Notes under the pieces: generated by a model
The model's input: the letters and a program-made list of their open reading frames with translations, nothing else
Database searches by the model: none
What the model was told of the DNA's origin: nothing
Translations under genes and position numbers: made by a program
Assembly: GCA_021733925.1 (NCBI GenBank)
Contig: JAIPJY010000028.1
Coordinates: 1-64,000, forward strand
Source of the DNA: Prosthecobacter sp.
Lineage (GTDB): Bacteria; Verrucomicrobiota; Verrucomicrobiia; Verrucomicrobiales; Verrucomicrobiaceae
Length of the DNA stretch: 64,000 nucleotides
Direction: 5' to 3'
Part shown: positions 20,330 through 29,100 of the stretch, in pieces
Layout: every line of letters starts with the position of its first letter
Numbering within the stretch: position 1 is the first letter of the stretch

Positions 20330-21769
20330 CTAAGCCGCAGGCAGGAAAATGATGATTTCGAGGCCGGTCGGCTCGCACAAGCGAGCGGTCACGGTGCCAC
20401 GGCAGGCTTCAATGCAGCGCTTGGTGATGGCTAGGCCGAGGCCGCTGCCGCCGGTGGAGCGGCGGCGTGCAGCCTCCGGGCGATAGAACGGCTCGAACAA
20501 ACGTGGCAAGGTTTCTGGTGGCACGCCGGGGCCTTGATCGGAGATGAGGATGATGATGTTGCCGTCCTGTTGATTGGCACAAATTTGAACGGGACCGGCT
20601 TCAGCGGCGTAGCGGGCGGCATTGCGCAGGATGTTGCCGATGGCGCGGTCGAGTGCGTCGCGCAGCGAATGCACCTGCAGCCCATTGGGCACGTTGAGTT
20701 GAACATCTGCTTCAGGCGCTTCACGAGCGATGACGGAGACGATCAGTTCATGCAAGTTGATGTCCTCGGCGGTTTCGCGTTCGGGCAGTGTCTCGGATTT
20801 GGAGAAGACGAGCACCTCTTCGACCAGCCTTGCCATGTGCTGGAGTTCGGCGTCGAGTTTTTGCAGGTAACCCGACTGTTCCGGCGTGCTGCGTTGTTCC
20901 ACCACACCAAGCGCCATCTGCATGCGCGCAATCGGTGAGCAGAGCTCATGCGCCACGTCTGCGGTGATGCGCCGCTGCTGCGCGACGTATTCGCCGAGCT
21001 GCGCGGCCATGGTGTTTACGGAGGATGAGAGCTCGCCCAACTCGTCGTTGCGGCTGCGCGAGACACGTTCCCCGAAGTTTCCCTGAGCGATGCGACCTGC
21101 GGCCTGGTTGAGCTTTCCGATGAAACCGGTGATGCCGCGAACGAAGGGCATCCAGACGAGTGCGGAGAGCAGCAGCGCTGCAGTGGCGAGTCCGAGCCAG
21201 GGCCATAGATCAAAGAACAGGCCGCCGCCGGTAATGGTGTTTGATACCATGAGCAGGGTCAGCGGGCGGTGGTCGCTCTGCTGGGTAAGGTCGAGATGAA
21301 CACCGGCCCAGTAATGTGCGGGATCGCCGGCGCGCAGCAAGAAGCGCGGCTTGGGTGGGGCATCGGCGGGTCTTTTTCTGACAACGCCAGGCGGCGGGCG
21401 TCGCGGTGGTGGGCGGTCGTTCGGACTGCGCTTGTCGATGAGCTTCGGCAGCACTTCCGCAGGAACTTGCACGCTGGTGCCCATGACCTGGGTGCCTGCA
21501 CTGCTGAACAAGGCGAATGTCACGTCATACTGTGCTCCGTGCTGGTGCAGGGCAGCAGGCCATTCCTGTTCGGGGAGCTGAGAGAGCTCGTCAGTGAGGC
21601 TGTCGCCGATGGCGGAGACGCGTTCGCCGGCTTCTCCAGAAAGCATCCAGTCCAGGCTCATGCGAAACTGCATGCCTAGGAATCCGAACACGAGCAATGC
21701 CAGCACCAGCAGATTCACCCCGAACCAGAGGAGGATCTTCAGATAGAGAGGCAGGTGCAGGCGGCTCAT
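20330..21769 (-). CDS. Two-component sensor histidine kinase
   Basis: 479 residues. TM1 is at about 12-34, followed by a ~150-residue periplasmic domain with an unusual Pro/Arg-rich stretch (about 118-142). TM2 is at about 188-208, then HAMP. In HisKA the phospho-acceptor is His274 in ADVAHELCSP; the Cys in place of the usual Arg/Lys is uncommon but tolerated. The HATPase domain has NILRNAARYA (N box), DQGPGVP (G1) and GGSGLGLAI (G2). It is transcribed after the response regulator gene, 6 bp downstream of it. The architecture is CpxA/EnvZ-like, but the stimulus cannot be read from the sequence. Confidence 0.92.
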   Translation of the reverse strand: MSRLHLPLYLKILLWFGVNLLVLALLVFGFLGMQFRMSLDWMLSGEAGERVSAIGDSLTDELSQLPEQEWPAALHQHGAQYDVTFALFSSAGTQVMGTSVQVPAEVLPKLIDKRSPNDRPPPRRPPPGVVRKRPADAPPKPRFLLRAGDPAHYWAGVHLDLTQQSDHRPLTLLMVSNTITGGGLFFDLWPWLGLATAALLLSALVWMPFVRGITGFIGKLNQAAGRIAQGNFGERVSRSRNDELGELSSSVNTMAAQLGEYVAQQRRITADVAHELCSPIARMQMALGVVEQRSTPEQSGYLQKLDAELQHMARLVEEVLVFSKSETLPERETAEDINLHELIVSVIAREAPEADVQLNVPNGLQVHSLRDALDRAIGNILRNAARYAAEAGPVQICANQQDGNIIILISDQGPGVPPETLPRLFEPFYRPEAARRRSTGGSGLGLAITKRCIEACRGTVTARLCEPTGLEIIIFLPAA

Positions 21770-21775
21770 GGTTGA

Positions 21776-22486
21776 TCAGCGGCTTGGAGTGACGAGCTGG
21801 TAGCCATAGCCGCGCACGGTTTTGATGAACTGCGGGTTCTTCGGGTCGTCCCCGAGTTTGCGGCGCAGCGTGGAAATGTGCATGTCGATGGCACGGTCAA
21901 ACACATCCCATTCACGGTCGGCGACATCTTCAATGAGCTGCTCACGCGTGCGCACGCGGCCATGGGCTTTTGCCAGCGAGAGAAGCAGGCCAAATTCCGC
22001 CGGAGTGAGTTCTAGAGGGGCATCCCCAAGCACGACCACATGCGAATCCGCATTGATGCGCAACGGGCCGACAATGAGTTCTTTCATAGGTGCCTGCGGA
22101 GAAGTTTCAGCGACCCAACCGGAGCGCCGCAGCACGGCCCGCAGGCGGGCGAGGAGTTCACGCGACGAAAAAGTCTTGGGCAGATAGTCATCTGCACCGA
22201 GTTCGAGACCGACGATGCGGTCCACCTCTTCACCACGGCCTGTGAGCATCACGACCGGCACCTTGGATTTTGTGCGGATGCGGCGCAGCACTTCGAATCC
22301 ATCGCAGCCGGGCATCATCACATCGAGGATAATCGCATGCCAAGTCTCACTAGTGGCGCGCTCGGCTCCGCTGTTTCCCTCGTGTTCGCATGCGACCTCG
22401 AAACCCATCGGCTTCAAGTAATCCGCCACGAGCTGAGAAAGCTCGGTGTCGTCATCAATCACAAGGATGCGCGTGGCGGGTATCAC
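21776..22486 (-). CDS. OmpR-family response regulator
   Basis: 236 residues. The receiver domain has the acidic cluster at 11-13, phospho-acceptor Asp55 (IILDVMMPG), a Thr in MLTGRG and the conserved Lys in DDYLPKTF. The C-terminal winged helix is of OmpR/PhoB type (LTPAEFGLLLSLA, VRTREQLIEDV, IDMHISTLRRKLGDD, TVRGYGYQL). It pairs with the adjacent histidine kinase. The gene is divergent from the kinase-like/vWA/PurA-like unit, and the two share a 253-bp control region. It may therefore regulate both directions, although no direct evidence is seen beyond an inverted repeat in that region. Confidence 0.93.
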   Translation of the reverse strand: MIPATRILVIDDDTELSQLVADYLKPMGFEVACEHEGNSGAERATSETWHAIILDVMMPGCDGFEVLRRIRTKSKVPVVMLTGRGEEVDRIVGLELGADDYLPKTFSSRELLARLRAVLRRSGWVAETSPQAPMKELIVGPLRINADSHVVVLGDAPLELTPAEFGLLLSLAKAHGRVRTREQLIEDVADREWDVFDRAIDMHISTLRRKLGDDPKNPQFIKTVRGYGYQLVTPSR

Positions 22487-22739: not shown

Positions 22740-23684
22740 ATGGCCTGGGTTGCAATCACCTGTCCGCAGTGCTCCGCGCCACTCCCGCGAGTGGCCATCT
22801 GGAGAGCCGTGAAATGCCCGTCTTGCGGCGCACTCATCAACCGGACGGAAGCGATGGTGCTGCGCGATTCGTTTCATCAGGCCCTGCTGCGTGCACGCCA
22901 AGGTCAAGGTGGTGCAGGAGCCGATCTTCAATGTGGTGGGGAGAGTTATCATGTGATCCAGACTCTGGGGAGCGGTGGAATATCCCAGGTCTATCTCGCC
23001 AGAAGAATCGGAGAGCAGCCTTTTCTGGCGACCATCAAGGTTTCTTCCTCGCCTGATGCTGCGGCCAGCTACGCCCGTGAGGCCGAAGTATTGCGTGAAC
23101 TGCAGGCATCCCAAAGCGGAGCGGCCAGCATTTATGCTGCCCAACGTCTGCCTGAAGTCATTACGCAAGGTCCGGTGGCGGGAGGTGCCTCCAAGCAGGC
23201 TCTGGTGCTGCGGCATCCCATCGGATACTGGGGAAGTCTGGCTGCATTGAGCGAGCGCTTTTCAAACGGCATCGATCCACGACATGCTGTGTGGATCTGG
23301 CGGCGGCTTCTGGATGTGCTGCATTTTTTGCATGCCCAAGGCTGGTCACATGGTGATGTGCGGCCTGAGCACGCGCTGGTGCATGTACAGGACCATGGCG
23401 TGCGTCTGATAGGATGGGCTTCGGCAAAAAGGAATGCGAGTGAGAGTGACCAATCCACGGATTTGCTGCGCTGCGCAAGGGTGGTGCGGGTTTTGGTGTG
23501 CGGGGCTGGCGGATCCGGCGTGATTCCACATGGAGTGCCCGCCGGCTTGACTGAGCTCTTGATGAGCGCGAGCGAGGACGAGAATTTTTGCCAAACACAG
23601 GGGGCGCATGGTCTGGATGTCTTGCTGCGAACTGCGGCTCAGGAAGCCTTCGGTGCGCCGTCGTTCCTGCCTTTGATCATTTAA
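22740..23684 (+). CDS. Zinc-ribbon protein kinase-like protein (probable pseudokinase)
   Basis: 314 residues. The ATG at 22740 is chosen because GGGAGG lies 9 bases upstream and the zinc ribbon then begins at residue 8; an ATG at 22683 is also in frame. The N-terminal ribbon has C8-x2-C11 and C26-x2-C29. The kinase-like domain starts near 73, with a glycine loop LGSGGISQVYLAR, Lys100 in ATIK and Glu114/116 in the C-helix. The catalytic loop is HGDVRPEH (Asp206 kept, Asn replaced by His). The DFG position reads GWA (LIGWASA), so the magnesium-binding Asp is missing. It probably binds ATP weakly or not at all, and may act as an adaptor. It is first in a three-gene unit. Confidence 0.72.
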   Translation: MAWVAITCPQCSAPLPRVAIWRAVKCPSCGALINRTEAMVLRDSFHQALLRARQGQGGAGADLQCGGESYHVIQTLGSGGISQVYLARRIGEQPFLATIKVSSSPDAAASYAREAEVLRELQASQSGAASIYAAQRLPEVITQGPVAGGASKQALVLRHPIGYWGSLAALSERFSNGIDPRHAVWIWRRLLDVLHFLHAQGWSHGDVRPEHALVHVQDHGVRLIGWASAKRNASESDQSTDLLRCARVVRVLVCGAGGSGVIPHGVPAGLTELLMSASEDENFCQTQGAHGLDVLLRTAAQEAFGAPSFLPLII

Positions 23685-23726
23685 CGTCACGATTCCGCAA
23701 ACAGACAACCTAACCACCAACACACC

Positions 23727-24692
23727 ATGGGATACGGAAACTACTCTTTAGCTGCTCACACCGCACTGATTGCCGGACGTTCGCATCAGGCACGTGCGGA
23801 AGTCTTCAGTCAAACGCAATGCCATGCACTCATGAATCCGAAAGGGCTCAAGGTGCGGGAATGCCGGGACAGCGCGGACCACCCCAATTCGCTGGGCATC
23901 GTCTTTGCCTTGGATGTCACGGGATCGATGGGAGACATCCCGCATCTGCTGGCAAAGCAGGAGCTGCCCAATCTGATGAAACTGCTCAACGCATGCGGAG
24001 AGGCGGACCCGCAGGTGATGTTCATGGCAGTGGGAGATGCCACCTCTGACCATGCCTCCTTGCAGGTGGGGCAGTTTGAAAGCACAGCGGAGCTGATGGA
24101 TCAGTGGCTGACCTGGAGCTATCTGGAAGGCGGTGGAGGTGGCAGCGGCCAGGAAAGTTATGAACTGGCGTTCTACATTGCCGCCCAACACACTGACATG
24201 GACAACTGGGTGAAGCGGAAGAAGAAGGGGTATCTCTTCATGACGGGTGACGAACTGCCTTACCCCGCCGTGTCACGCCATCAGATTGAGGCGCTTGTTG
24301 GTGAAAAGCTTGATGAAGATATTCCGATTGAAGAGGTGATCGCCGCTGCTGCGGAGAGCTACCATCTTTTCTTTCTGATTCCCGATGCGGGGCGGGCAAA
24401 GCGCTGCGGCCCTCGCTGGAGGCAACTTCTTGGAGATCACACCATCATCATGGAATCGCCAAGTGATGCGTGTACCGTGGCGGCTGCCATCGTGGGATTG
24501 ACCGAGGGGCGCATCCCAAGCCTCGAGGCCTTGGCGACAATCTTGTCCAACAATGGATTCAACCGCGATCATGTGGGATCAACCATTCGCGCTGTCCAAC
24601 CCTATGCCGCACTGCTCAACCTGACACCCCTGGCTTCAGCCAGCTCAGGAGCCGCGTCCGGGGATTCGTGGTGGAAGCGTTTGTTTGGGTGA
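23727..24692 (+). CDS. von Willebrand factor A-like domain protein
   Basis: 321 residues without a signal peptide or membrane segment, so cytosolic. The core strand FALDVTGSMGD puts Asp63, Thr65 and Ser67 in a MIDAS-like metal motif (the usual DxSxS with Thr in the second position). Further vWA-like features are VMFMAVGDATSDH, a Gly-rich GGGGGSGQES turn, and YLFMTGDE. The C-terminal ~100 residues are helical and of no family I recognise. It lies 42 bp after the kinase-like gene and 9 bp before the PurA-like gene. Cytosolic vWA proteins often act as metal-dependent scaffolds with ATPases or kinases, which fits its neighbours. Confidence 0.78.
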   Translation: MGYGNYSLAAHTALIAGRSHQARAEVFSQTQCHALMNPKGLKVRECRDSADHPNSLGIVFALDVTGSMGDIPHLLAKQELPNLMKLLNACGEADPQVMFMAVGDATSDHASLQVGQFESTAELMDQWLTWSYLEGGGGGSGQESYELAFYIAAQHTDMDNWVKRKKKGYLFMTGDELPYPAVSRHQIEALVGEKLDEDIPIEEVIAAAAESYHLFFLIPDAGRAKRCGPRWRQLLGDHTIIMESPSDACTVAAAIVGLTEGRIPSLEALATILSNNGFNRDHVGSTIRAVQPYAALLNLTPLASASSGAASGDSWWKRLFG

Positions 24693-24701
24693 TCTTCTCC
24701 T

Positions 24702-26054
24702 GTGAGTGAAACACGCTATGCATCGGTGCTGGGGCTTGGCTTTGGTGACTGCGGAAAGGGGATTTTCGTTGACGCACTGACGCGGCGCTGGCAGGCCCAT
24801 ACCGTTGTTCGTTTCAGCGGCGGAGCGCAGGCCGGGCATAATGTAGTGACCGCTGCAGAAGGCGGGCATTCGACACGGCACCACACGTTTTCACAGTTCG
24901 GCTCGGGGACACTGGAGCCGGGAACGCGCACGGTGCTGCTTGATCCGATGGTGCTGCATCCGACGGCCTTGCTCGTGGAGGCTGAGGCCTTGAGTCGCAT
25001 CGGTGTTCATGATGCACTCTCGCGTCTGATGATTGATGGGCGTTGTCGTATCACGACTCCCTATCATCAGGCAGCGGGAAGGGCGCGCGAGCTCCTGCGA
25101 GGTGAGGCGGTTCATGGAACCTGCGGTGTGGGTGTGGGAGAAACGGTGCGTCACGCGCTGGCTCATCCCGATCAGGCGATGCGGTATGCCGATCTGTCGG
25201 CTGCCAGTGCATCCCAGGTGCGGGTGCAACTCGACAAGCTTAACTCGATTCGAGAGACACTTTTCGCGGAGCTTGCTCTGCTGTGCCCAAGAAACGGGGA
25301 TGAGGCATTGGCGGTGGAGATGCAGACGTTGCAGGATGAGTCATTGGCCGGGAAATGGTTCAATGTGGCAAGAGCGCTGGCGCGCCAATGCGCTCCGGCG
25401 TCCATCGAGATGATGGGTGCTCAATTGAAGCAGCCCGGATGCGTATTGTTTGAGGGCGCGCAAGGCGTGCTCCTCGACGAATGGCGTGGTTTTCATCCCC
25501 ATACGACCTGGAGTTCCATCACCACGGCAGCAGTGGAAGCCGCTACCGCATGTTTTGATCTTGCCGCACCCTTCGAGCACTATGGTGTGCTGAGGTCCTA
25601 CCTCACTCGGCATGGTGCTGGCCCATTGCCGACACACGATGAATCGTTGAATGACTGGCTGCCCGAGCCGCACAACCACTCCGAGGGATGGCAAGGCCGA
25701 TTTAGGCGCGGGCACCCCGATGCCGTGCTTTTGCGCTACGCACTCGAAGTGACGGGTCCGCTGAATGGGCTGCTGGTCAGCCATCTGGATGTGTTTCAAC
25801 GCGGCATGCCGCTCAAGTGGTGTGAGAGTTATTCGACTGACTCATCGCCCTGCATTGAACGACTTCCTATTGGCGCCTGCGGTGACTTGTCACACCAGAG
25901 CATGCTGACCAAACTTCTCGAGAGTGCCCGACCACGGTATTCTTCGGACTCCATCCATTCGGACGGTGACTACCTAGGCCGCATTGCCGGTGTGACTGAG
26001 CTGCCGGTCATGCTGCGCTCCTACGGCAACACCAGCGCGGCTGTCCAGGGGTAG
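24702..26054 (+). CDS. Divergent adenylosuccinate synthetase (PurA)-like enzyme
   Basis: 450 residues from a GTG start 9 bp after the vWA stop; the E. coli enzyme has 432. The PurA fold is recognisable. LGLGFGDCGKGIFVD matches the P-loop-like GDEGKGK motif, keeping the catalytic-base Asp but with Glu to Cys. AGHN keeps the catalytic His, HGTCGVGVGE and FEGAQGVLLD follow, and TTWSS matches the IMP-site segment. The loop that binds aspartate in true PurA (ATTGR) reads GWQGR here. The GTP-specificity motif TKLD reads SHLD, keeping Asp. It is therefore probably not the housekeeping purine enzyme: it may ligate another acid, or act on a different nucleotide. Last gene of the three-gene unit. Confidence 0.8.
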   Translation: MSETRYASVLGLGFGDCGKGIFVDALTRRWQAHTVVRFSGGAQAGHNVVTAAEGGHSTRHHTFSQFGSGTLEPGTRTVLLDPMVLHPTALLVEAEALSRIGVHDALSRLMIDGRCRITTPYHQAAGRARELLRGEAVHGTCGVGVGETVRHALAHPDQAMRYADLSAASASQVRVQLDKLNSIRETLFAELALLCPRNGDEALAVEMQTLQDESLAGKWFNVARALARQCAPASIEMMGAQLKQPGCVLFEGAQGVLLDEWRGFHPHTTWSSITTAAVEAATACFDLAAPFEHYGVLRSYLTRHGAGPLPTHDESLNDWLPEPHNHSEGWQGRFRRGHPDAVLLRYALEVTGPLNGLLVSHLDVFQRGMPLKWCESYSTDSSPCIERLPIGACGDLSHQSMLTKLLESARPRYSSDSIHSDGDYLGRIAGVTELPVMLRSYGNTSAAVQG

Positions 26055-26146: not shown

Positions 26147-29100
26147 ATGATGAAAACGATTTTTGCCTTTCTACTGCTCACGACCAGTCTTTCAGCCCAC
26201 ACTTGGAAAGCCGGTGCATCCGCTGACAAAGAGACCCTGCGTCAGCATCTTCTGGTGGAATGGATGCAGCAGCATGCGGTGTCGGCTGAAGGAGAGATCA
26301 AGCCCGTGCAGGTGACTTCGGCGGCATCTACTTTGAATCTCGCTGCGGCAATGGCGGCGAACGCACCTGCGGCGGCAAAGCCATTTCTCGCATTCCAGAG
26401 GCTCGAATTGAAGTGGGACAAGGATTTCTTGTTCGTGGGATCGAACGGGCTGCCGGATCACAACATGATGGTAGGCATCACGGCATGGCAGCAGCAGGTG
26501 CCGTTGCCGCAGAATTACACGGGGGACAATGCATGGCGTATTCCTCTGAATCCGGTGCCTGCGAAAACTCCAGCGGTCGTGGAGGGGCATTTCCTGCGGG
26601 GTGCCATTGCCCTTGGTGTGAACGGCATTCCGATCTTCAATCCGCAGAACAATCGAGGAGAGGTTTCCTATGAGATTGGCGAACTGGATCAGTGGGGGGG
26701 GCACTGCGGGCGGGCGGATGATTATCACTACCACATCGCGCCGTTGCATTTGCAATCGGTGGTGGGGAAGGGGATGCCGATTGCGTATGCGCTGGATGGT
26801 TACCCGATCTATGGGCTCACGGAGCCGGATGGCTCGCCAGTGGGCAAGCTGGACGAATGCCATGGCCATGAGGATGCGAAGGTGGGCTACCACTATCATG
26901 CCTCAACGAAGCGGCCGTATCTTCAGAGCGCTTTTCATGGAGAAGTCGTCGAGGCGGAGGGCCAGGTGGACCCCCAGCCACGTGCGCAGGGTGTGCGCCC
27001 GGATACAGCTCCGCTGCGTGGAGCTGAGATCACCGGCTTTGAGAGCTCGGGATCCAACAGCTACAAGCTGAGCTATCAGGTGGGCGGTGAGACACGCTCG
27101 ATCTCCTACAGCATCAACAGCGATGGTACTTATCCCTTTGAGTTTAACAATGGCCGCGAGGGTGTCGTGAAGGAAGTCTATACGAGCCGGGGTGGTGGTG
27201 GCAAAGGACCCGGCGGAGCTGGAGGAAAAGGCAATGGTTTGGGGAAGGGCAATGGAATGAGGCACGATGACCGTCGGCCCGCTCCTCCAGATGAAGCGCC
27301 GCCTACACCGCAGTCGCAGGCCTCTGGCAGCATGATGGATGTGAATGGCGATGGCTTCGTCACTGCACAAGAGTTTGCCGACAATGTGAAGCGTGAGCTT
27401 GCTGCGAAACGCAGCGGTGGAACGCTGGCAGATGCGCTGGCTAAGGCTCGTGGCGAATTCACTTCGCTGGATCGCAATGGGGATGGCAGACTGGATGTGA
27501 GTGAGATGCAAGCACCAGCGGGGTCGCCTGCCGAACAACCGAGTGGTCGGCGTGGCGGAGCGCCTGCGGCAGCGGGCGGAGGCTTCGTTTTGACCAGTCC
27601 TGAGGTGGAAGATGGTGGAAATTTGCCCGCAGATTACACGGGCGATGGAGGTGGTGCTACGCTGCCCCTTGAATGGAAGGGCGCACCCGCTGGCACGAGG
27701 AGCTATGCGTTGATCATGGATCATCTTGCGCCGAGCAATGAGATGAAGAGCTACTGGGTCATGTGGGACATTCCGGCGAACGTGACGAGCCTGCCGAAGA
27801 ATGTGAAGGGTGTGGGCAGATTGGGAGTCGGCTTCAAAGGCGAAATCGGCTACGAGCCGCCGCATTCGAAGGGGCCGGGGGCGAAGACGTATGTGCTGCA
27901 TGTTTATGCACTTTCTGCTGAGCCGAAAATCGCGAGTGCATCGGGTGTGAATCGTGAAGCGTTACTTGCGGCGATCGAAGGGAAAATTCTCGCCAAAGCC
28001 GATTTGAGTGTGGTTTACTCGCGTGGTGGTGTCGCAAAAGGTGGTCCTGGCGGAAGTCCGCCACCGACGCAGCCCGGGCCACCACCAGATCAGCCGGGAG
28101 AACAGCGCAAACCGTGGATGCAAATACACGGTTCCGAATTGGACGGCAACGGCGATGGCATCGTGACACTGGAAGAGACTCTTGCGGACATGAAGGTTGC
28201 GGCTTCGAAATACGATGCGGATAAAAATGACAGCATAACTTCCGCAGAAATTGATGGGGCTGGAGACATCCGAGCGGGTGCCGCTTTTGCAGGATTCATT
28301 TACCGTCACGCTTTCGAACTCGATGCCAATCAGGACAGTCAGTTGACCACTGCCGAGCTTGAAAAAGCTGCGAAGTATATTTTTGACTCTGCGGATCTCG
28401 ATCATGACGGCAAGCTGAGCGCGGCCGAAGTGCAAAGTGCTCCTAATGCGCCGCTGGGCAATCCGCCTCCGCGTAGCACGGACGAGCCACCTGCGACGCC
28501 TCCGCCTGGTCCCGCTATGAAAGCCACGAGCAGCAGCAGTGCCCTGCTCATGCAGGCTCAAGGCAATCCCGGAGGTGGTAAAAAGAAGAAAGGCGGTGGG
28601 CCGCCCGGACTTATCAAGCCGAGCATCACTGACACGATGAAGCTCAATGTCTATGCGGACAATTGGTTCATGCTTTATGTGAATGGACGTCTCGTTGCTG
28701 TCGATCCCATTCAGTTCACCCCGCACAACGTCGTCAGCGTGGATTTCCTGCCTGAGTATCCGATGACGATTGCGGTGCTCGCGAAGGACAATGCCGATCC
28801 CAAGACCGGTCTCGAATACGGCAGCAGCATTGGTGATGGAGGCTTCGTTTTGAAGTTTGCCGATGGCACCGTGACCAATGCCAGTTGGAAAGCCAAAAGC
28901 TTCTTCCACGGCCCGATCAACGGCGACACTGCAAACCCGCAGGTCAAACAGGAACTGCTGCCGGCCAACTGGTGGGGCGTCGATTTCGATGACAGCACCT
29001 GGAAAAACGCCAAAGAGTACACCGTGGAGGAGGTCGATCCCAAGCAGCCTTATTTCGAGAATGATTTTGAAGGCGCCAAGTTCATCTGGACTGACGACCT

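What the first reader, a model, noticed from the sequence alone, without database searches (positions are those of the whole stretch)
22740..26054. Three-gene unit: zinc-ribbon pseudokinase, vWA protein and divergent PurA-like enzyme
Three cytosolic proteins are encoded in a tight plus-strand run (42 bp and 9 bp gaps), and none is a standard partner of the others in the pathways I know. The kinase-like protein has a zinc ribbon and lost the DFG Asp, the vWA protein has a MIDAS-like DVTGSM, and the enzyme is a PurA relative with a changed substrate loop. vWA plus kinase pairs are known in bacterial stress and conflict systems (for example TerY-type modules), but I know none with a PurA-like enzyme. 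A nucleotide-derived signal or modified nucleotide made by the enzyme and controlled by the pseudokinase/vWA pair is a plausible idea. It is not shown.
Basis: partly seen in the sequence, partly recalled or inferred. Interest (0 to 1): 0.85.

Follow-up and report, generated by a model that had tools for sequence, protein, structure and literature searches.

The report
vWA–PurA-like enzyme unit tied to NAD
A small gene unit found in scattered bacteria and many large phages pairs a metal-binding-type protein with a redesigned relative of an AMP-making enzyme, and in several bacteria it sits beside NAD-recycling genes, which points to an unstudied reaction in NAD or ADP-ribose metabolism.

Summary
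The three genes are real and placed as stated. The linkage is not chance: among 176 non-duplicate vWA loci (bacteria, plasmids, phages), 170 carry the PurA-like gene on the same strand, and four of the six misses end within 1 kb of a contig end. The core is vWA + PurA-like. The kinase-like protein is an add-on and a pseudokinase by its residues, with a Zn ribbon in most bacteria and a J domain in phages. The PurA-like protein forms its own clade: it keeps the catalytic and GTP residues, but IMP- and aspartate-site residues are replaced in nearly all of 157 members. All 23 carrier genomes tested also have a normal purA. The new lead is NAD: the unit adjoins NrtR, an ADP-ribose-responsive repressor, in 8 of 12 sampled Pseudomonadota carriers, and continues a PncB-NadE-NadM operon in Rhodocyclaceae and Accumulibacter. 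I propose a GTP-driven ligase of NAD/ADP-ribose metabolism with vWA as partner. The reaction is unknown, and the window copy itself has no NAD gene beside it.

The parts
22740..23684 (+). Kinase-like protein (314 aa), pseudokinase by residues, N-terminal zinc ribbon
22761..22826 (+). Four-cysteine zinc ribbon (C8, C11, C26, C29)
   Evidence: sequence; C 0.99 in 77 bacterial-type rows
23727..24692 (+). vWA-domain protein (321 aa)
23913..23930 (+). Metal-site motif DVTGSM (residues 63-68)
   Evidence: D63 162 of 163, T/S65 162 of 163, S67 162 of 163 rows
24702..26054 (+). PurA-like enzyme (450 aa, GTG start), separate clade of the PurA family
24744..24761 (+). P-loop GDCGKG with the catalytic Asp (residue 16 = E. 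coli D13)
25611..25613 (+). His304, in place of the Val (E. coli V273) shared by PurA and PurZ
   Evidence: His in 157 of 157
25689..25712 (+). Rebuilt aspartate loop WQGRFRRG (residues 330-337), one residue shorter than in PurA

Best explanation
A patchy accessory module whose core is a vWA protein plus a PurA-family enzyme; a pseudokinase with a zinc ribbon or J domain is often added. Proposed mechanism: the PurA-like enzyme still uses GTP to phosphorylate a carbonyl oxygen of a nucleotide and lets a nucleophile displace it, but its nucleotide is not ordinary IMP and its co-substrate is not L-aspartate. The setting is NAD+/ADP-ribose turnover: when NAD+ is broken down, ADP-ribose rises, NrtR lets go of DNA (in carriers where NrtR adjoins the unit), and the unit is made, in some carriers with NAD salvage enzymes, to convert, repair or detoxify an NAD-related nucleotide. 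The vWA protein is probably its metal-dependent partner and the pseudokinase an ATP-sensing or tethering subunit. Shown: linkage, residue changes, clade, NrtR/NAD neighbourhood in some carriers. Inferred: substrate, complex, regulation, and that the window copy shares the role.
Against: The window copy has no NAD gene or notable palindrome upstream (190 of 200 shuffles as good); its genome's one NrtR is on another contig. Only 9 of 79 genome-contig loci carry NrtR/PncB/NadE/NadM (a weak Nudix hit in L064 not counted); the Verrucomicrobia, Variovorax and Myxococcota loci do not. All six unit loci with NrtR in the 1.5-kb comparison are Pseudomonadota. Only 5 of 26 viral records have a NAPRTase, with no control. 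Palindromes beat shuffles clearly in 4 of 11 NrtR-side regions, two of them near-identical. The lost R143 sits in a gappy stretch, and an Arg common at window residue 150 (consensus) could replace it, so a 5'-phosphate is not excluded. The subclade joining bacterial and kinase-bearing viral members has support 83 only. Nothing was assayed.
Confidence: 0.42

Rival explanations
1. A conflict or stress-signalling module: the enzyme makes a modified nucleotide that acts as signal or toxin, and vWA and the pseudokinase sense the trigger.
For: Patchy accessory distribution, presence in phages and bacteria, a pseudokinase fused to Zn ribbon or J domain. Kinase + Zn ribbon + PP2C + vWA sets are described for actinobacterial conflict systems (PMC7159879, passages).
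Against: No PADLOC family matches vWA or PurA-like; no recurrent effector gene beside the unit across phyla; lytic phages of one genus keep it in about 190 records.
Confidence: 0.2
2. A base-modification or purine-analogue enzyme like PurZ: it makes an unusual (deoxy)adenylate for DNA or RNA in phages, and bacteria use it likewise.
For: PurA-family enzyme in large phages; the phage gene is filed as a '2-aminooxy adenylosuccinate synthetase'; Ec V273, near the sugar 2' position (PMC8342488, passages), is His in 157 of 157.
Against: The PurZ mark (Ser at D13) is absent; Asp is kept in 154 of 157. No recurrent modification or polymerase partner in the clusters. NrtR linkage is not expected.
Confidence: 0.15
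3. A regulatory GTP-binding switch: the PurA fold is kept but the protein mainly controls vWA or its target and is not a true ligase.
For: GTP-site residues kept while substrate residues are replaced; obligate vWA neighbour.
Against: Catalytic D13, H41 and Q224 kept in 154-156 of 157, which a switch alone would not need.
Confidence: 0.1
4. An ordinary extra adenylosuccinate synthetase placed by chance or under purine control.
For: Fold and catalytic residues of PurA.
Against: Canonical purA present in 23 of 23 genomes tested; IMP/Asp residues replaced; linkage in 170 of 176.
Confidence: 0.05

Closest known systems
Adenylosuccinate synthetase PurA (PF00709; E. coli PurA)
   Same: Whole fold, P-loop, catalytic D13/H41, guanine-side D333
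   Different: N38, T129, V273, T301, R305 replaced nearly throughout; aspartate loop one residue shorter; an extra copy beside vWA
PurZ / PurZ0 of Z-genome phages (PMC12884076 section 24; PMC8342488 passages)
   Same: A phage-borne PurA relative with changed substrate residues
   Different: PurZ lost D13 and keeps N, T, V in the base pocket; here the reverse
NARP1 (Adps + Namat) NAD+ reconstitution (PMC12774641, passages)
   Same: A module shared by phages and bacterial chromosomes at the NAD+/ADP-ribose interface
   Different: No PRPS-like or Nampt-like enzyme in the unit; the NAD role here rests on neighbourhood only
NrtR regulons of NAD metabolism (PMC6800001, passages)
   Same: NrtR beside NAD genes, often divergent
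   Different: I met no description of a vWA-PurA-like pair as a neighbour (listing: 0 papers with both NrtR and adenylosuccinate)
Kinase/vWA sets of conflict systems (PMC7159879 passages; TerY-P triads recalled)
   Same: Zinc-ribbon kinase-like protein beside a standalone vWA protein
   Different: Third partner is PurA-like, not PP2C; the kinase lacks catalytic residues

Membership tests
PurA, adenylosuccinate synthetase | PurA fold | tested here: met
PurA, adenylosuccinate synthetase | Catalytic D13/H41 and GTP-site residues | tested here: met
   154-156 of 157
PurA, adenylosuccinate synthetase | IMP and L-Asp contact residues (N38, T129, R131, R143, V273, T301, R303, R305) | tested here: not met
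   kept in 1, 2, 0, 5, 0, 0, 27, 0 of 157; canonical 24, 24, 19, 24, 24, 24, 24, 24 of 24 (roles partly recalled, partly PMC8342488)
PurA, adenylosuccinate synthetase | NCBIfam purA cut-off | tested here: not met
   160.6 against 402; 125.2 against 395.55
PurA, adenylosuccinate synthetase | IMP + Asp + GTP activity | not testable with these tools
   needs an enzyme assay
PurZ | Ser in place of D13 | tested here: not met
   rule from PMC12884076 section 24
PurZ | NF038379 cut-off of 300 bits | tested here: not met
   27.6 bits
Active Ser/Thr protein kinase | HRD Asp, loop Asn, DFG Asp together | tested here: not met
   0 of 91 rows; two of three in 3 of 91
vWA domain | Fold and DxSxS-type metal motif | tested here: met
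NrtR regulon, window copy | NrtR or operator-like palindrome beside the unit | tested here: not met
NrtR regulon, relatives | NrtR gene adjoining the unit | tested here: met
   8 of 12 Pseudomonadota carriers sampled
NrtR regulon, relatives | NrtR operator at the unit's promoter | tested here: inconclusive
   clear palindrome in 4 of 11 regions; no known motif used
NARP1 | Adps and Namat homologues | tested here: not met
   no PRPS or Nampt family among the matches of the three proteins
Catalogued anti-phage defence system | PADLOC match of the core proteins | tested here: not met
   0 families for vWA and PurA-like; the kinase has only generic kinase matches
TerY-P triad | PP2C phosphatase and Ter genes nearby | not tested
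   no profile search for them was run on the loci

The most novel reading that the evidence does not exclude
A new GTP-powered step in NAD+/ADP-ribose metabolism: a PurA-family ligase with a vWA partner rebuilds or modifies an NAD-type nucleotide (for example re-aminating a hypoxanthine dinucleotide, or joining a nucleophile to ADP-ribose), induced by ADP-ribose in some bacteria and carried by large phages against NAD+ depletion.
Probability: 0.2. Interest if true: 0.93.

Novelty: categorically new. Interest (0 to 1): 0.78.

Why it matters
A gene pair kept together from soil bacteria to lytic phages of several hosts, with a PurA-family active site rebuilt in the same way in nearly every member, implies a defined reaction that has no name. 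Two published trees of the PurA family separate PurA from PurZ; in the section I read, 767 sequences were placed with 251 in the PurA group and 151 in the PurZ group, and the remaining 365 (my subtraction) were not discussed there. If the NAD link is right, the unit adds a new chemistry to NAD+ repair or ADP-ribose handling, a field that phage-bacteria NAD+ warfare has made active, and it gives a direct test: GTP, NAD-type nucleotides and one or two purified proteins.

Tried and rejected
Plain purA duplicate: rejected, since 22 of 22 genomes tested plus the window genome hold a canonical purA besides. PurZ or DNA 2-aminoadenine enzyme: D13 kept, cut-off missed. Catalogued defence system: no PADLOC match for the core. 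Wider conserved neighbourhood: clustering of genes around the vWA gene found no further partner shared across phyla; a ~122 aa protein precedes vWA in 40-45 viral loci only. Operator search at the window promoter: nothing above shuffles. NAPRTase in viral records: 5 of 26, no control, so given little weight. A solved-structure sequence search with the four-row vWA profile gave nothing significant (best E 0.32). In fold searches the absence of a family was not used as evidence.

Literature searches: adenylosuccinate synthetase with von Willebrand, protein kinase, conflict system: 0 papers; with vWA, kinase, phage: 0; PurA, vWA domain, zinc ribbon, gene neighborhood, three of four: 4 papers, none with both PurA and vWA domain in its counts; PurA-like with mycobacteriophage: 2 genome announcements, seen as listing; 'aminooxy adenylosuccinate synthetase': 0; NrtR and five other terms, four of six: 9 papers, none counting adenylosuccinate; adenylosuccinate, vwa, phage: 2 papers, one opened for passages, where a Vi01-like phage lists the two as separate entries. 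The library holds open-licence papers only and supplements were not available, so prior description elsewhere cannot be excluded.

Rows dropped: 4 PurA-like fragments under 330 aa before the residue count. Seven of 17 genome regions (L219, L225, L226, L228, L230, L231, L233) share the contig length of a genome contigs locus and were not counted again in the 176. Several viral loci are near-copies (for example L088/L089/L090, L118/L120), so the 176 are not independent. L085 and L086, from the viral collection, look bacterial (71-72% identity) and were put with the bacterial rows in residue counts. The kinase residue count covers 91 rows found by blastp; further viral and plasmid kinases found by tblastn are not in it. 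Not done: empty-site comparison, complex prediction, Ter/PP2C profile search.
Full report
Observation. The window holds three plus-strand genes at 22740-23684 (kinase-like, 314 aa), 23727-24692 (vWA, 321 aa) and 24702-26054 (PurA-like, GTG start, 450 aa), with gaps of 42 and 9 bp. Upstream lie a two-component pair on the minus strand (21776-22486 and 20330-21769); downstream a plus-strand gene starts at 26147. A consensus scan found two promoter-like sites (mean of shuffles 1.4) and one terminator-like site (2.9), so no call on transcription is made.

Not the genome's purA. The window's genome has a canonical purA on another contig (598.8 bits) besides the window copy (198.3 bits). In 22 further carrier genomes, all 22 have a canonical match of 522.9-614.3 bits and a PurA-like match of 178.3-232.2 bits; one has a third PF00709 match of 518.5 bits.

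Linkage. I scanned genome contigs and viral contigs with a vWA alignment. The tool kept the best 80 of 557 (79 distinct) and the best 80 of 158 relatives. With tblastn from several members of each family, PurA-like was found in 75 of 79 genome-contig loci, 78 of 80 viral loci, 3 of 3 named phages, 4 of 4 plasmid loci and 17 of 17 regions from whole genomes, always on the vWA strand; the kinase in 75, 25, 1, 4 and 13. Seven of the 17 regions share a contig length with a genome contigs locus, so without them the count is 170 of 176. Of the six misses, L069, L082, L086 and L116 have under 1 kb of contig left; L062 and L076 are real misses. In 160 of the 177 raw cases the two matches lie within 400 bp. 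Near-copies among viral loci make these counts non-independent.

Distribution. The unit is patchy. Counting the carrier at the centre of each sample, it was found in 2 of 194 genomes of the window's phylum, 8 of 59 of its family, 6 of 398 Pseudomonadota genomes and 8 of 145 genomes of one of their families. In the phage collection vWA matches 206 records, 188 of them Mycobacterium phages; PurA-like 226; kinase 190. Mangeria has kinase, vWA, a 90-aa gene and PurA-like in a row. Vibrio phage phiKT1024 and Rhizobium phage TM30 have vWA and PurA-like without a kinase match.

Proteins. Kinase-like: the VAIK Lys and helix-C Glu are mostly kept, but the HRD Asp, the loop Asn and the DFG Asp are never all present (0 of 91; two of three in 3 of 91). 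Bacterial-type rows have the Zn ribbon (Cys 0.99 of 77); the 14 viral rows have an HPD-type J motif there (His 1.00), with weak Pfam DnaJ matches below cut-off in the phage and Acetobacter proteins. vWA: D63, E118, E143, Y145, D175 and E176 are kept in 162-163 of 163 rows. PurA-like: the model (pLDDT 93.6) is a PurA fold.

Active site. In E. coli numbering, over 157 PurA-like rows and 24 canonical PurA rows from window-type and carrier genomes: D13 154, K16 154, H41 156, Q224 156, T239 153, D333 154 kept. N38 kept in 1 (Gln 155), T129 in 2 (Cys 135, Val 20), R131 in 0, R143 in 5, V273 in 0 (His 157), T301 in 0 (Gln 156), R303 in 27, R305 in 0; one loop residue is deleted in 157. Canonical rows keep these in 24 of 24, except R131 in 19. 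PurZ of phiVC8 keeps N, T and V but has Ser at D13. PMC8342488 (passages) puts the equivalent N, T and V in the nucleotide pocket, names an Arg of the other subunit that ion-pairs with the phosphate, and says E. coli R303 contacts aspartate; other residue roles are recalled. Caution: R143 lies in a gappy stretch, and Arg is common at window residue 150 (consensus).

Tree. In a quick tree of 75 chosen rows, all 61 PurA-like rows form one clade (SH-aLRT 98) apart from 13 canonical rows (99) and the one PurZ, whose branch is very long. Inside are two groups: most kinase-less viral rows with alphaproteobacterial-type rows (96), and bacterial, kinase-bearing viral and actinobacterial rows (83, weak).

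NAD link. In L011 (Rhodocyclaceae) the order is NrtR on the minus strand, then a PncA-like gene (weak match, 26.3 bits against a 174 cut-off), PncB (532.3 over 379), NadE (589.9 over 479), NadM/Nudix (325.6, below its 397 cut-off), kinase, vWA and PurA-like, all plus. L032, L042 and L044 (Accumulibacter) have PncB, NadE and NadM before the kinase; L224 (genome G726) has these genes divergent and NrtR next to the kinase. NrtR also adjoins the unit in four Massilia and one Janthinobacterium locus and an Allorhizobium plasmid; in an Acetobacter plasmid two ORF pieces match it. The NrtR calls are below the NCBIfam cut-off of 400 (about 136-162 bits), but the NrtR winged-helix model PF21906 exceeds its cut-off in 28 of 37 genomes. 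In Rhodococcus and Tsukamurella plasmids a Nudix gene follows the trio; its NrtR likeness is weak.

How strong is it? In genomes drawn from the phylum and family without regard to NAD genes there are 12 distinct carriers; NrtR lies within 4 kb in 8; one of the other four (G755) ends 0.4 kb beyond vWA. Four of the 8 lack the kinase and have NrtR divergent from vWA. Of 38 NrtR places in 37 handles (G194 and G231 appear to be one genome), 10 lie within 10 kb of the unit; about 0.1 would be expected by my arithmetic (20 kb over some 7 Mb each). In loci with 1.5 kb flanks, 6 of 25 unit loci have NrtR, all six among 12 Pseudomonadota loci; 0 of 24 canonical purA loci has any NAD-type hit. Against it: only 9 of 79 genome-contig loci show NAD salvage or NrtR genes; palindromes in NrtR-side regions exceed shuffles clearly in 4 of 11 (0, 4, 3 and 4 of 200 shuffles as good), two of these near-identical. 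The window promoter shows none, and the window genome's NrtR lies elsewhere, with two ADP-ribosylglycohydrolase-type genes and an RNA 2'-phosphotransferase. In phages, 5 of 26 records have a NAPRTase, one of them some 7 kb from vWA with a NadM-like gene between; there was no control.

Reading. NrtR is released from DNA by ADP-ribose in M. smegmatis (PMC6800001, passages). A unit placed under NrtR would be made when NAD+ is being cleaved. The kept D13/H41/GTP set argues for GTP-driven phosphorylation of a lactam-like oxygen; the replaced N38, T129, V273, T301, R305 set argues that both the nucleotide and the nucleophile differ from IMP and Asp. I therefore propose a ligase of NAD-type nucleotides, with vWA as partner. 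This is inference: no substrate, complex or regulation was tested. The phage-and-bacterium pattern resembles NARP1 (PMC12774641, passages) in habit, not in parts.

Against what is known. It is a member of the PurA superfamily by fold, not of the PurA or PurZ families by residues and cut-offs. The section of PMC12884076 that I read splits 767 sequences into a PurA group of 251 and a PurZ group of 151 and does not describe the other 365 (my subtraction). PMC7824862, on jumbo phages, has no occurrence of adenylosuccinate or PurA in its main text (word search). I met no description of the pair in the searches listed under Tried and rejected. The rating 'categorically new' refers to the system: no known system has this core pair as far as those searches reach.

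Noticed in passing
L003 5977-7305 and other Bixzunavirus records: The record name '2-aminooxy adenylosuccinate synthetase' suggests PurZ, but D13 is kept, so the name looks unfounded.
   Followed up: partly
L112 5630-5998 and 40-45 viral loci: A ~122 aa coiled-coil-like protein of unknown function directly precedes the kinase-less vWA-PurA-like pair.
   Followed up: partly
L066, L071, L075, L077, L083: Myxococcota/Deltaproteobacteria loci carry two vWA genes of this family, in tandem or on both sides of PurA-like.
   Followed up: no
L063 8942-10648: A long ORF lies between vWA and PurA-like where they are normally adjacent.
   Followed up: no
L227 6927-8048 and L034 5927-7018: In Massilia-type loci an ORF that may be SPFH-like (by eye) lies between NrtR and the kinase; it has no NCBIfam match.
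   Followed up: partly
L005 1942-4269: Rhizobium phage TM30 has a PRTase_3 protein, a HAD hydrolase and a Nudix protein upstream of vWA-PurA-like.
   Followed up: partly
L004 5201-5845, L158 2631-3104, L160 7934-8407: A NADAR-family gene lies near the pair in a Vibrio phage and two viral contigs.
   Followed up: partly
L237 6527-10260 (window genome, contig C89): The genome's own NrtR sits with two ADP-ribosylglycohydrolase-type genes and an RNA 2'-phosphotransferase.
   Followed up: partly
NC_054717.1 151512-152096, NC_054721.1 151842-152426: In some Bixzunavirus records the vWA match covers only residues 1-180 and lies under an HNH endonuclease annotation, as if the gene were interrupted.
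   Followed up: no
L203 8363-12762: Downstream of the Allorhizobium plasmid unit lie a MoxR/GvpN-like AAA ATPase, a DUF5682 and a DUF4132 gene.
   Followed up: no
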